Source of the DNA: Pseudomonas nunensis
Lineage (GTDB): Bacteria > Pseudomonadota > Gammaproteobacteria > Pseudomonadales > Pseudomonadaceae
DNA length: 64,000 nt
Direction: 5' to 3'
Assembly: GCF_024296925.1 (NCBI RefSeq)
Contig: NZ_CP101125.1
Location: forward strand, 1,862,501 to 1,926,500
Part shown: positions 2,127 to 60,825 of the stretch, in pieces
How the letters are laid out: every line of letters starts with the position of its first letter
Numbering within the stretch: the first letter of the stretch is position 1
Notes under the pieces: model-generated
Told to the model about the DNA's origin: nothing
What the model saw: the letters and a program-made list of their open reading frames with translations, nothing else
The model's database searches: none
Translations under genes and position numbers: made by a program

Positions 2127-3461
2127 TCAGCGCAACAGATGCACCGCCAGCCCAACCAACGCACAGCCGATCAACACCTGGATCACCCCGCGCTTGAAGC
2201 GAAACAAGGCTATCGCCGCTGCGATGGCAATCAGCGCTGAAGGCCAGTCGAGGTGAGCGCTGAAGCCGTTGGGCCAGAGCACGTGGTAGCCGAAGAAACA
2301 CGCGAGGTTGAGGATCACTCCGACCACCGCAGCGGTAATCGCGGTCAGCGGCGCGGTGAATTTCAGTTCGTTGTGCGTCGATTCCACCAGCGGCCCGCCG
2401 GCGAGGATGAACAGGAACGAGGGCAGGAAGGTGAACCAGGTCACCAGCATGGCGGCGACGGCTCCGGCGAGAAAGACATGATCGGCGCCGAACACTTGCT
2501 GCGCATAACCGCCGACAAATGCGACGAAGGCCACCACCATGATCAGCGGTCCGGGCGTGGTTTCACCGAGCGCCAGGCCATCGATCATCTGCGTCGGCGT
2601 CAGCCAGCCATAGTGGCCGACCGCGCCCTGATACACATAGGGCAGCACGGCGTAGGCGCCACCGAAGGTCAGCAATGCGGCTTTGGTGAAGAACCAACTC
2701 ATCTGCGTCAGCGTGCCGTTCCAGCCGAACAGCAGCGTGAGCAGTCCCATCGGCAACGCCCACAACACGGCACCGATCAACGCCAGACGCAGCAGCTTCA
2801 CCGCACTGAAACGCGCATGCTCAGGCGTCGGGGTGTCGTCATCGATCAGCGCCGGGCCGTAGGATTTATTCGTTCCGCTGTGGCCGCCGTTGCTGAATTT
2901 CTCCGGCGCCCAGCTTCCGACGACATATCCGATAACCGCCGCGCCCAGCACAATCAGCGGAAACGGCACATTGAACGCGAAAATGGCCGTGAACGATGCC
3001 GCCGCGATCCCCCACAGCCAGTTGTTCTTCAGCGCCCGTGAGCCGATGCGATGGGCAGCCTGCAGCACAATCGCGGTGACCGCAGGCTTGATCCCATAAA
3101 ACAACCCGGCCACCACCGGCACGTCGCCAAACGCGATGTACATCCACGACAACCCGATCAGGATGAACAGCGACGGCAACACAAACAGCCCGCCGGCAAT
3201 CACACCGCCCCAGGTCCGGTGCATCAGCCAGCCAATGTACGTCGCCAGTTGCTGCGCCTCGGGGCCGGGCAGCAACATGCAATAGTTGAGCGCGTGCAGA
3301 AAACGCCGCTCCGAAATCCAGCGCCGACGCTCGACCAATTCCTGGTGCATGATCGAAATCTGCCCGGCCGGGCCACCGAAACTGATGAAGCCGAGCTTGA
3401 GCCAGAACAGGAAAGCTTCGCGCAGGGAAATGGCTTGGGGTTTGGCGAGAGGGTCACTCAA
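2127..3461 (-). CDS. chrA: Chromate efflux transporter ChrA, two-domain form
   Basis: A 444-residue inner-membrane protein of the CHR superfamily that exports chromate. It has the long, duplicated architecture. The N-terminal half shows WLKLGFISFGGPAGQI and PGPEAQQLATYIGWL. The C-terminal half repeats the pattern with FFTKAALLTFGGAYAVLPYV and LGETTPGPLIMVVAFVAFVGGY. FGG and PGP are the signature motifs of each half. About ten to twelve hydrophobic segments are visible. The gene is monocistronic, convergent with the upstream secreted-protein gene and followed by a REP pair. No chrB-type regulator is adjacent. The family and the length (about 400-450) agree well. Confidence 0.92.
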   Translation of the reverse strand: MSDPLAKPQAISLREAFLFWLKLGFISFGGPAGQISIMHQELVERRRWISERRFLHALNYCMLLPGPEAQQLATYIGWLMHRTWGGVIAGGLFVLPSLFILIGLSWMYIAFGDVPVVAGLFYGIKPAVTAIVLQAAHRIGSRALKNNWLWGIAAASFTAIFAFNVPFPLIVLGAAVIGYVVGSWAPEKFSNGGHSGTNKSYGPALIDDDTPTPEHARFSAVKLLRLALIGAVLWALPMGLLTLLFGWNGTLTQMSWFFTKAALLTFGGAYAVLPYVYQGAVGHYGWLTPTQMIDGLALGETTPGPLIMVVAFVAFVGGYAQQVFGADHVFLAGAVAAMLVTWFTFLPSFLFILAGGPLVESTHNELKFTAPLTAITAAVVGVILNLACFFGYHVLWPNGFSAHLDWPSALIAIAAAIALFRFKRGVIQVLIGCALVGLAVHLLR

Positions 3462-58704: not shown

Positions 58705-58790
58705 TGTGGGAGCGGGCTTGCTCGCGAAGGCGTCGGTAAGGCCGATGCATCTTCGGAGCCTGTAATACCGCTTTCGCGAGCAAGCCCGCT
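58705..58790. repeat. REP pair, left part, interrupted by the IS110 element
   Basis: GTGGGAGCGGGCTTGCTCGC, a spacer, then the inverse unit that stops at CAAGCCCGCT (58781-58790). The missing CCCACA half resumes at 59959 beyond the insertion. Confidence 0.92.
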
Positions 58791-58799
58791 TGTATGTTT

Positions 58800-58985
58800 A
58801 GACTTGAAGGGGTGGGCGGGACTAAAAGCTCGATTCTGACTCTGACCAGTACAGACCGTGGGAGACTTCTCATCCCGCCCCTTCTACCCAAAGCGCCGAT
58901 AAGGAATTCATCGGTAAAACCGACGATAGAGGCAAGCCAGCGCAAGGGTAAACCCCGACAAGCACCTAAACCCTAGCTCCGAGGA
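58800..58985 (+). ncRNA. Candidate bridge RNA of the IS110 element
   Basis: The left end forms two hairpin loops. Loop 1 has stem arms 58806-58821 (GAAGGGGTGGGCGGGA) and 58873-58884 (TCCCGCCCCTTC) around a loop of about 50 nt. Its 5' part carries AAGCTCG (58826-58832), which matches the target left half AAGCCCG allowing one G-U pair. Its 3' part carries GTGGGAG (58858-58864), the complement of target right half CTCCCAC. A second loop is closed by GCGC (58893-58896 and 58940-58943) and has segments GGAATT (58903-58908) and ATAGAGG (58926-58932) that could pair with the element's own ends, the latter with one mismatch. Ends of the RNA are not determined. Confidence 0.65.
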
Positions 58986-58991
58986 TTCGTC

Positions 58992-59927
58992 ATGACAATC
59001 CTTACTTTGCAGACCGTGGTTGGCATCGATATCGCCAAGGCTGAAATCGTTGCTTATCGCACCGATCGTCAAGCCACTGACTCCATCAAAAACGATCGAA
59101 CAGCCCTCAAACGCTGGCTTAAAACACTGCCCGCGCAAAGTGCTATCGCCGTTGAAGCTACCAACATCTATCACCTGGACACCGTCGAGCTCGCTCATGC
59201 AATGGGCCATCAGGTCTATGTCGTGGACGCTTATCGGGTGAGCAACTATCGCCGTGGTATCGGTCAACGAGCCAAGAACGATCCCTGCGATGCTCGTCTG
59301 CTGGCGCGCTATTTGACGAATGAACAAGACGGGCTGCGAATCTGGAGCCCGCCACCCAAGGCCTACACCTCGCTGAAAAGCCTGCTCCACAGGCGTGCAA
59401 CGCTGATCCAGAACCACGCTGGTCTGATGCTGAGCTGGGCCAATGAACCCTTGCTAAAGAAAGTGCAGGCCGCCCAGCAAAAGGCCTTCAAGCAAGCGGA
59501 TCAGGCCATTCAAAAACTGCTGCGCAAGGTCAGCAAAGAGGCAGGTATTGAAGCCAATATCGACCGTTGCAAAGCCATCGAAGGGGTTGGCGAACTGACA
59601 GCAACCGGGTTGGCGACGACCTTTATGCGCGGTGATTTTGCCAATGGTGATGCGTTTATCGCGTTTCTGGGGATGGACCTTACGGTCGATGACTCCGGGA
59701 AGAAAAACGGGCCCCGGTATCTGACCAAAAAAGGGGATCCGGAAGTACGCCGGCTGGCTTACAACGCCGCTATGGCGGCCTGCCGCTCGGCTAAATGGAA
59801 GCCGTTTTACGAGGCGTATTTGGCAAGAGGCTTCTCAAAAACCCAAGCCTTGGTAGCCCTTGCCCGGAAACTCTGCCGGGTGGCATTCGCCCTGATGAAA
59901 AATCAGAGCGAATACCGACCGGCTTGA
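58992..59927 (+). CDS. IS110-family recombinase (transposase)
   Basis: 311 residues. The N-terminal RuvC-like DEDD domain shows Asp13 (VVGIDIAKAEIV), Glu55 (AIAVEATNIYH), Asp97 and Asp100 (KNDPCDARLLARYL). The C-terminal transposase-20 domain (IEGVGELTATGLATTF, FIAFLGMDLTVDDSGKKNGP, YLTKKGDPEVRRLAYNAAMAAC) contains Ser235, the candidate nucleophile. A helical linker lies between (about 130-185). GAGG lies 8 nt before the ATG. Intact, so the element may be active. Confidence 0.94.
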   Translation: MTILTLQTVVGIDIAKAEIVAYRTDRQATDSIKNDRTALKRWLKTLPAQSAIAVEATNIYHLDTVELAHAMGHQVYVVDAYRVSNYRRGIGQRAKNDPCDARLLARYLTNEQDGLRIWSPPPKAYTSLKSLLHRRATLIQNHAGLMLSWANEPLLKKVQAAQQKAFKQADQAIQKLLRKVSKEAGIEANIDRCKAIEGVGELTATGLATTFMRGDFANGDAFIAFLGMDLTVDDSGKKNGPRYLTKKGDPEVRRLAYNAAMAACRSAKWKPFYEAYLARGFSKTQALVALARKLCRVAFALMKNQSEYRPA

Positions 59928-59956
59928 AGTTACAGGGTTGCCCTGCAACATAGAAT

Positions 59957-60036
59957 CTCCCACATTGGTTCGGTGTTGTTTGCAGGATTTGTGGCCGCCA
60001 CATATCTCCTGTGGGAGCGAGCCTGCTCGCGAAGGC
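59957..60036. repeat. REP pair, right part, beyond the IS110 element
   Basis: Begins with CTCCCACATTGGTTCGGTG, then an inverted unit GTGGGAGCGAGCCTGCTCGC ending near 60036. Joined to the left part it restores an intact REP pair like the one at 51498-51590. Confidence 0.9.
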
Positions 60037-60456
60037 GTCAGGCCTGACACACCACGTCATCGTTCTTCGCGGGCAAGCCTTGCTCCTACAAAAGCAGGCG
60101 TTTAAGCGAGTGTTTAAAGACACCCGGTGTTACGTCATAAACGGCTACAACGCCTTGCGCCGTTACCTACGCGTACGCCAGAATCGGCCGGCTTGTGCGT
60201 CTATGGGGTGGGATATATCGTTTCCGGGTCACTGCAAAACAGTGATCGGGTTTGGTAGCCCGCCTCGTTATCAGCCGCATGGCAACACCTTATGACGTCT
60301 CTTTTTTGCGACTCTGTTTTTATGGTGGTCATGCGTGGGGCCCCTTGTGGGCGCCGGGTTCTGGTACGACCGGTCTACCAACCCACGTATGGCCGCCACC
60401 CTTCGTTTGGTAGCGAGGGTGATGGCTCCTTAAAATTCGTATCAGAGGTTCCATCC
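60037..60456 (+). other. Long structured leader of the DUF6124 gene
   Basis: 420 nt without a credible gene. It holds a duplicated TTTGGTAGC motif (60251-60259 and 60406-60414), a GGGGCCCCTTGTGGGCGCC hairpin near 60338, and a stem-loop GCCGCCACCCT (60392-60402) / AGGGTGATGGC (60416-60426) 31 nt before the start codon. The arrangement looks like a regulatory leader or attenuator; the apparent reading frame from 60292 is not a good start. Confidence 0.5.
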
Positions 60457-60825
60457 ATGTTCAAAGTTACTCCCAACCCCCCGAATACTGATCCAGTACC
60501 CTACGACGCCTCTTTTGATCTTGACCCACAAAAGCTGAAAGCAGCGGCCGATCGCACGCTCAACTTCTACCTTAACCCCGGGGCGACGAAAACGCAGATA
60601 CCGCCCCGCAGTTCCGGCACCTTTCTCACCATCGACGCAGCGGTGGATGACGAAACGTTGCTGGTCGAGGCTTATGAGTCGGTGTCATCGGTGCGCAAGA
60701 TGCTCATCGACCTCGCCGAGCTGGAAGACGGCCCGCGCCGCCATACGATGCTGGTGATGCATCGGGCGCTGCTGATCGGTGAGATGGCGGTCAATCGCGT
60801 ACTGGATAACCACAAGCCTGGGTAG
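60457..60825 (+). CDS. DUF6124 (DUF3077-like) small protein
   Basis: 122 residues from the ATG at 60457 preceded by AGAGG. MFKVTPNPPNTDPVPYDASF and DPQKLKAAADRTLNFYLNP, followed by a conserved helical tail (LLVEAYESVSSVRKMLIDLAELEDGPRRHTMLVMHRALLIGEMAVNRVLD), is the small Pseudomonas family that I know as DUF6124. Members are often multi-copy in one genome and preceded by a long conserved leader like the one here. Function unknown; no signal peptide or membrane segment. Confidence 0.8.
   Translation: MFKVTPNPPNTDPVPYDASFDLDPQKLKAAADRTLNFYLNPGATKTQIPPRSSGTFLTIDAAVDDETLLVEAYESVSSVRKMLIDLAELEDGPRRHTMLVMHRALLIGEMAVNRVLDNHKPG

What the first reader, a model, noticed from the sequence alone, without database searches (positions are those of the whole stretch)
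58800..58985. IS110 leader reads as a bridge RNA whose target loop is programmed for the REP it sits in
Loop 1 of the left-end hairpin carries AAGCTCG on its 5' side and GTGGGAG on its 3' side. These pair, respectively, with the two strands of the left (AAGCCCG, one G-U) and right (CTCCCAC) halves of the insertion site, in the order known for the IS621 bridge RNA (left target guide, then right target guide). A second loop has candidate donor guides (GGAATT, ATAGAGG) that pair imperfectly with the element's own ends. Bridge RNAs are established for IS110 elements; a REP-targeting copy in this genome with readable guides is specific and testable.
Basis: partly seen in the sequence, partly recalled or inferred. 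Interest (0 to 1): 0.85.

Follow-up and report, generated by a model that had tools for sequence, protein, structure and literature searches.

The report
REP-aimed bridge RNA of an IS110 element
A jumping gene in this Pseudomonas genome appears to carry a small guide RNA whose letters match the repeated DNA hairpins it inserts into, and in its relatives the guide letters change together with the local repeat, as expected of a known RNA-guided class.

Summary
The reading holds. The window carries an ISPpu10-like IS110-group element (58791-59958, core CT) inserted in a REP. Its leader looks like an IS621-type bridge RNA: LTG AAGCUCG, RTG GUGGGAG, then a donor loop. Of 150 copies fetched, 149 (45 Pseudomonas genomes) showed both ends. 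Guides follow insertion sites: over 22 distinct guides 6.06 of 7 LTG positions pair, 5.10 when shuffled (0 of 5000). Host REP supply does not explain it: in 13 hosts whose commonest REP form is not the guide's best match, 19 of 38 insertions hit the guide's form, 6.2 expected (0 of 20000). In one lineage RTG and right half-site change together (5 of 5 copies). Tree-based tests are underpowered. Stems covary across clades, not clearly within the window's clade. One correction: the right donor guide is GCAAG (58932-58936), not ATAGAGG. No IS621-type 5' stem-loop fits. REP-targeting bridge RNAs and natural reprogramming are known, so this is a new member of a known kind; its value is a natural series of re-aimed guides on one scaffold. 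No RNA was measured.

The parts
58706..58727 (+). outer REP of the REP pair (REPIN) into which the element inserted
   Evidence: sequence: GTGGGAGCGGGCTTGCTCGCGA, the inverted form of the interrupted REP
58774..58790 (+). left part of the interrupted REP: TCGCGAGCAAGCCCG plus core CT (left target AAGCCCG 58782-58788, core 58789-58790)
   Evidence: uninterrupted AAGCCCGCTCCCAC occurs 1407 times in this genome
58791..59958 (+). IS110-group insertion sequence (ISPpu10-like), 3 copies found in the genome, right core included
58793..58798 (+). TATGTT, proposed -10 box of the promoter formed at the RE-LE junction of the circle
   Evidence: same place as TATTAT in the IS621 locus (read by eye)
58806..58950 (+). 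predicted bridge RNA, target loop plus donor loop; start inferred from the -10 box, 3' end not determined
58806..58816 (+). target-loop stem, 5' arm GAAGGGGTGGG
58826..58832 (+). left target guide (LTG) AAGCUCG
58835..58855 (+). distal hairpin of the target loop (UCUG ACU ... AGU A CAGA)
   Evidence: (U-A to C-G in 4 of 15)
58858..58864 (+). right target guide (RTG) GUGGGAG, pairs with CTCCCAC
   Evidence: RTG GUAGGAG with site CTCCTAC in 5 of 5 copies of G094
58865..58866 (+). putative handshake guide after the RTG (AC); A (149 of 149 copies) would pair with the donor T next to the core
   Evidence: IS621 numbering from PMC11208158 passages
58874..58884 (+). target-loop stem, 3' arm CCCGCCCCTTC
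58893..58943 (+). donor-binding loop, closed by GCGC/GCGC, distal hairpin UCGGU/ACCGA at 58911-58923
58901..58907 (+). left donor guide AAGGAAU, pairs with the right end ATAGAAT (6 of 7, one of them wobble)
   Evidence: sequence; IS621 counterpart ACAGUAUC read by eye
58932..58936 (+). right donor guide GCAAG, pairs with left-end CTTGT (corrected register)
   Evidence: IS621 leader has GCAAG followed by GU, its RDG end and handshake guide; CAAG at this place in 148 of 149 copies
58937..58938 (+). putative handshake guide after the RDG (CC); first C would pair with the target G next to the core
58992..59927 (+). IS110 recombinase gene, 311 aa; D13, E55, D97, D100 and S235 correspond to the IS621 catalytic residues
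   Evidence: Pfam PF01548 and PF02371; ISCro4 9t56 and IS621 8wt6 in PDB (alignment to ISCro4 shown); motif positions; IS621 residues from passages
59938..59943 (+). TTGCCC, proposed -35 box, 17 bp from TATGTT once the ends are joined
59950..59956 (+). left donor ATAGAAT at the right end of the element
59957..59964 (+). core CT and right part of the REP, CTCCCACA

Best explanation
This is an IS110-group element of the ISPpu10 kind with an intact recombinase gene. When it excises as a circle, joining right end to left end forms a promoter that transcribes a bridge RNA of roughly 150 nt from the left end. [quoted passage not shown] the donor loop pairs with the element's own ends. The DEDD/serine recombinase then exchanges strands at the shared CT core, placing the element between GCCCG and CCCAC of a REP. 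Shown here by sequence: anatomy, guide-target covariation, stem covariation across clades, catalytic residues, many uninterrupted sites of the same sequence. Inferred from IS621: excision, transcription, complex formation, chemistry.
For: Guides follow targets: 22 distinct guides, 6.06 of 7 paired against 5.10 shuffled, 0 of 5000; only register 0 scores high (6.06; next 3.39). Mutual information at positions -3, -6 and -2 reached by 0, 2 and 15 of 2000 shuffles. Host REP supply controlled: Watson-Crick matches 5.99 against 5.66 for 114 copies, 0 of 5000; 19 of 38 against 6.2 in 13 hosts, 0 of 20000. Similar scaffolds carry AAAGCCCG, AAGGCTCG, AAAGCTCG, AAAGCCGG, each mostly in the matching REP. 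RTG and site differ together in G094 (5 of 5). Fewest guide changes on the recombinase tree: 8, 7 and 4 at -3, -6, -2. Stem pairs: 8 of 27 with changes on both sides, shuffles 4.1, 0 of 500 reach it. Junction -35 match peaks at 17-bp spacing, 3.13 of 6 against 0.49-1.96 at the other ten spacings tried. IS621 shares left end TGTAT, CT core, order of guides, GCAAG. Recombinase matches ISCro4 and IS621 chains at E 2.9e-18 and 1.2e-17.
Against: Kinship-corrected pairs are too few for significance (5, 5, 4 pairs). With wobble counted and one copy per genome the census test is borderline (236 of 5000). Some guides pair poorly in the fixed register: AGCTCGT (G005, G127, G382), AAAGCCG (G363, G091), ATACCCG (G244), AGCCTAG (G300). 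G138 sits in AAGCCCC in 3 of 4 copies although its guide reads AAGCCCG. G080 has RTG GUGAGAG at CTCCCAC (mismatch in 5 of 5). Right half and ends are nearly constant, so RTG (outside G094) and donor guides are not tested by covariation. An LTG-like match alone is common by chance (74977 of 200000). The leader's fold alone is not extreme (z -1.80). Within the window's clade stem covariation is weak: 2 pairs with double change, reached by 169 of 500 shuffles. Model R1 does not find the IS621 leader. Rfam gathering search has nothing in the leader. Promoter hexamers are weak (mostly 3-4 of 6). No transcript data.
Confidence: 0.93

Rival explanations
1. The recombinase protein (or REP hairpin shape) selects REPs by itself, and the leader's resemblance to the REP is chance or by descent from a captured flank.
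For: REP is a strong hairpin; the right half CTCCCAC is almost constant, so RTG pairing is uninformative in most lineages; an LTG-like match alone is common by chance.
Against: Guide letters change with the site, beyond host supply; RTG and site differ together in G094; matching is confined to one register and absent at -12 to -8.
Confidence: 0.04
2. The leader is only a regulatory 5' UTR or the template of an antisense sRNA, as reported for ISPpu9 (Asr9), with no guide role.
For: ISPpu9, also in REPs, has a structured 244-nt 5' UTR and two sRNAs of about 180 nt (PMC8450116, passages).
Against: Regulation does not predict guide-target covariation or a GCAAG matching the left end. The two roles can coexist.
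Confidence: 0.03
3. Guide-REP agreement reflects only relatedness: related elements in related hosts share both guide and REP form.
For: Guides track host REP composition (5.98 against 5.41, 0 of 20000, 36 hosts, not corrected for kinship); tree-based pairs are underpowered, and at -3 about one pair in four or five goes the other way.
Against: The census-controlled test compares forms inside each host: G124 puts 4 of 5 copies in a form that is 10% of its counted REPs, G039 4 of 4 in a 27% form; guides with U at -3 hit T in 55 of 64, 42.7 expected.
Confidence: 0.05

Closest known systems
IS621 (IS110 group, E. coli) and its 177-nt bridge RNA
   Same: LE-encoded RNA, order LTG-RTG-LDG-RDG, CT core, REP target, left end TGTAT, GCAAG right donor guide, junction promoter with 17-bp spacer, DEDD plus serine recombinase
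   Different: Leader not found by the model of this family; no room for the 5' stem-loop that IS621 has before the target loop; different guide letters
ISPpu10 (P. putida, occupant of REPs) and its relatives
   Same: A source name calls an 88%-identical protein ISPpu10; REP insertion with a 2-bp repeat is reported for ISPpu10 and ISPpu9 (PMC1525189, passages)
   Different: Not compared letter by letter: the ISPpu10 paper is not held and I did not fetch the KT2440 element
ISPa11 and ISEc21 seekRNAs (IS1111 / IS110)
   Same: RNA with two target-matching segments; ISPa11 targets P. aeruginosa REPs; natural reprogramming shown for ISEc11/ISXne4 (PMC11187229, passages)
   Different: ISPa11 is of the IS1111 group, with the RNA downstream of the gene and the reverse order of segments
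ISPpu9 with Asr9/Ssr9 sRNAs
   Same: IS110-type element in Pseudomonas REPs with leader RNAs (PMC8450116, passages)
   Different: Described as expression control, one sRNA antisense to the leader; a guide role is not described in the passages seen

Membership tests
IS110 family | RuvC-like DEDD domain (PF01548) and Transposase_20 domain (PF02371) with catalytic serine | tested here: met
   D13, E55, D97, D100, S235
IS110 group (not IS1111) | long left, short right non-coding end; RNA at the left end | tested here: met
   201 nt left, 31 nt right with core
IS110-group bridge RNA | target loop and donor loop, each with guide segments on both sides | tested here: met
   (sequence and covariation; no probing)
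IS110-group bridge RNA | LTG pairs bottom strand of left target, RTG top strand of right target, and they covary with the site | tested here: met
   LTG; RTG: one lineage only, G094
IS110-group bridge RNA | donor guides pair with and covary with the element's ends | tested here: inconclusive
   pairing present (GCAAG 5 of 5 incl. one wobble; AAGGAAU 6 of 7), but ends hardly vary, so no covariation test
IS110-group bridge RNA | promoter re-formed at RE-LE junction of the circle | tested here: inconclusive
   right place and spacing, weak hexamers; no transcript
IS621-like bridge RNA | 5' stem-loop before the target loop | tested here: not met
   only 7 nt lie between the -10 box and the target-loop stem in the window; similar spacing in A1. 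Depends on the inferred promoter
IS110-group bridge RNA | RNA is transcribed and bound by the recombinase, which recombines at the core | not testable with these tools
   needs experiment

The most novel reading that the evidence does not exclude
ISPpu10-like elements and Pseudomonas REPs co-evolve through the bridge RNA: on one conserved scaffold the left target guide has been re-aimed repeatedly (at least 8 changes at position -3 alone), in step with the REP forms of each host, with G-U-capable letters widening the range of REP forms hit, occasional matching RTG and handshake-guide changes, and a bridge RNA without the 5' stem-loop.
Probability: 0.45. Interest if true: 0.62.

Novelty: new member of a known kind. 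Interest (0 to 1): 0.45.

Why it matters
It gives a readable, natural mutational series: similar bridge RNAs with different guides, in hosts that often hold hundreds to over a thousand candidate sites in several letter variants. Insertions then report mismatch and wobble tolerance in living cells: U at -3 prefers T over C, and 12 of 18 unpaired guide-site positions in the 22-guide table lie at -7 to -5. Guide re-aiming in nature, and how it follows host repeats, becomes directly testable. For genome engineering, a shorter bridge RNA lacking the 5' stem-loop, if confirmed active, would be a useful scaffold.

Tried and rejected
RNAalifold on 41 leaders from both clades (A1) gave a poor target-loop stem because MAFFT gapped it differently in the two clades; I replaced it by arm-by-arm helix search (after a first version that stopped with an error) and by a model from the window's clade alone (A2, R1). 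The long-range pairing CUUG...CAAG seen in the minimum-energy fold competes with the target-loop stem and was not adopted. Rfam has no match in the leader at gathering threshold. No DNA match of the element in the plasmid collection (blastn). No leader without recombinase in this genome (3 matches, the three copies). Literature searches listed the founding papers; among the listings seen I found none on guides of ISPpu10-like elements against host REP forms. This covers the held open-licence library only, and most listed papers were seen as listing or abstract start. The first census test counted wobble as full pairing and was weaker than the Watson-Crick version; the latter was chosen, and both are reported.

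Full report
What is there. The window holds an insertion sequence at 58791-59958 whose single gene (58992-59927, 311 aa) has the two IS110 domains. The only chains matched in the PDB sequence search at E <= 0.001 are the ISCro4 and IS621 recombinases. The five catalytic residues of IS621 named in PMC11208158 (passages) have counterparts D13, E55, D97, D100 and S235 (motif positions, placed with the ISCro4 alignment). The same genome has two more copies; all three sit at the same point of a REP. A source name for an 88%-identical protein is ISPpu10.

Target loop. Left half-site AAGCCCG, core CT, right half CCCAC. The leader has AAGCTCG at 58826-58832 and GTGGGAG at 58858-58864. [quoted passage not shown] none in the copy L003, which sits in AAGCTCG), the second with the top strand across the core. 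In Markov draws of the leader an LTG-like match alone appears in 74977 of 200000, both guides in this order in 200 of 200000.

Relatives. A protein search of 398 Pseudomonas genomes found relatives in 50 at E <= 1e-60 (at most five candidates per genome scored, table cut). I took 150 copies, the three of this genome included; an end-anchored script found both ends in 149 (miss: L137), from 45 genomes. The right-end pattern included CTCCCAC with up to two substitutions and the left-end pattern the core CT, so the constancy of core and right half is partly built in; the left half was free. There are 46 guide-genome combinations with 22 distinct 14-letter guide strings.

Covariation. Over the 22 guides, 6.06 of 7 positions pair (wobble allowed) against 5.10 (sd 0.13) when guides are shuffled among elements, 0 of 5000; without wobble 5.71 against 4.44, 0 of 5000. 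Other registers give 1.79-3.39. Positions -12 to -8 show nothing (1.18 against 1.14). Mutual information is clear at -3, -6 and -2 (0, 2, 15 of 2000 shuffles); -1, -4 and -5 are weaker and -7 shows none. Examples: guides AAGCCCG, AGGCTCG, AAGCTCG and AAGCCGG on similar scaffolds sit mostly in the matching REP; G216 (TGCCCG) sits in GCCCG sites in 4 of 5 and ACCCG in one; G080 (AGCCGCC) in AGCCGCC in 5 of 5; G094 has AGTTCG with RTG GTAGGAG and sits in AAGTTCG CT CCTAC in 5 of 5, a 14-mer found 124 times uninterrupted in G094 and in none of the other 7 genomes searched for it.

Is it only what the host offers? I counted five uninterrupted REP forms in the 45 hosts. Of 149 copies, 114 sit in those forms with CTCCCAC on the right; 35 were left out and are listed. 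The 114 carry 5.99 Watson-Crick matches against 5.66 expected from host supply, 0 of 5000; with the three hosts of shifted guide AGCTCGT left out and one random copy from each of 35 hosts, the median over 40 draws is 0.0000, range up to 0.027. In 13 hosts (shifted guides left out) whose commonest form is not the guide's best, 19 of 38 insertions are in the guide's form against 6.2 expected, 0 of 20000; individual hosts go both ways (G124 4 of 5, G039 4 of 4; G300 0 of 5, G204 0 of 2). With wobble counted as full pairing, 74 of 114 are fully paired against 59.7 (0 of 5000), but one copy per genome is borderline, 236 of 5000. Guides with U at -3 hit T in 55 of 64 (42.7 expected, 0 of 5000) and guides with C hit C in 40 of 41 (36.4 expected, 106 of 5000), so wobble is tolerated but not preferred. 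Guides also fit their own host's REP mix better than other hosts' (5.98 against 5.41, 0 of 20000, 36 hosts), without correction for kinship.

Tree. On the recombinase tree (46 rows, quick method) the fewest changes of guide state are 8 at -3, 7 at -6 and 4 at -2. Independent pairs on starred branches (5, 5, 4) go the same way as the target in 3.3, 3.2 and 3.0 cases on average and the other way in 1.1, 0 and 0; too few for significance.

Structure. Among 43 leaders the target-loop stem GAAGGGGUGGG/CCCGCCCCUUC exists in 15 distinct versions; the distal hairpin has UCUG/CAGA, UCCG/CGGA and AUUGC/GCAAU forms. Within the window's clade (15 leaders) covariation is weak: 97.3% of cells paired, but only 2 pairs with double change, reached by 169 of 500 shuffles. 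A model from these finds the leader in 27 of 27 loci outside the clade, at the expected place, and not in the IS621 locus. On the resulting alignment 8 of 27 pairs have changes on both sides, such as A-U to G-C and G-C to U-A (shuffles 4.1, 0 of 500; slid versions at most 4); that alignment is fitted to the structure, and the innermost donor-hairpin pair fails in 18 of 28.

Donor loop and correction. The leader of an annotated IS621-family element (L159, read by eye) shows ACAGUAUC matching its own right end, and GCAAG followed by GU; PMC11208158 (passages) names G166/U167 as handshake guide right after RDG base G165. The same GCAAG (58932-58936) stands in the window leader, followed by CC, and CAAG is at this place in 148 of 149 copies (the exception, L029, lacks the loop). 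So the right donor guide is GCAAG, not ATAGAGG. The base after CAAG is C in the other lineages; it differs only in G080 (G, site base C) and in G004/G138 (U, site base C in 4 of 5). In G080 the new base pairs with the site; in G138 it does not pair with C. This is suggestive only.

Promoter and length. Joining right and left end places TTGCCC 17 bp from TATGTT. Over elements the -35 match peaks at spacing 17 (3.13 of 6; the other spacings from 12 to 22 give 0.49-1.96), against 0.85 in the integrated form. IS621 has TTGCAG-17-TATTAT at the same place (by eye). In the window only 7 nt lie between the -10 box and the target-loop stem; with a usual start 5-9 nt after the -10 box (recalled), the 5' stem-loop of IS621, described as structurally conserved among orthologues, has no room. 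The RNA would be about 150 nt.

Known or new. IS110 elements in REPs are long known (PMC1525189, passages), IS621 itself targets REPs, bridge RNAs covary with targets across thousands of IS110s (PMC11208160, passages and sections 5 and 12), and natural reprogramming is shown for ISEc11/ISXne4 (PMC11187229, passages). This is therefore a new member of a known kind. Not seen in the listings: a study of guides of the ISPpu10 kind against host REP forms.

Noticed in passing
window 60215-60403 (+): C4 antisense RNA (60318-60403) and its a1/b1 target motif (60215-60266), Rfam hits, just upstream of a DUF6124 gene (60457-60825); similar stretches recur at other places of this genome (L004-L007).
   Followed up: partly
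L029 (genome G091), 2360-2549 (-): Single IS110 copy whose leader lacks the whole donor loop, apparently lost between two CCCCTTCAAG-like repeats, and whose guide does not fit its site well.
   Followed up: partly
window 59933-59945 (+): Right end has a CAGGG/CCCTG hairpin after the stop codon; in L022 the counterpart is a 14-bp inverted repeat (read by eye) that includes part of the end sequence. Possible terminator or antisense feature.
   Followed up: no
L131 (genome G185): Copy whose left flank is TTGGTAG, not a REP half, while the right flank is a normal REP half; off-target insertion or later rearrangement.
   Followed up: no
L015, L050, L051 (genome G138) and L014 (G004): Guide AAGCCCG but site AAGCCCC in 4 of 5 copies of this element: mismatch next to the core, together with a changed base after CAAG (U).
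   Followed up: partly
window 60011-60089: A second REP pair lies just right of the element, about 50 bases from the insertion.
   Followed up: no
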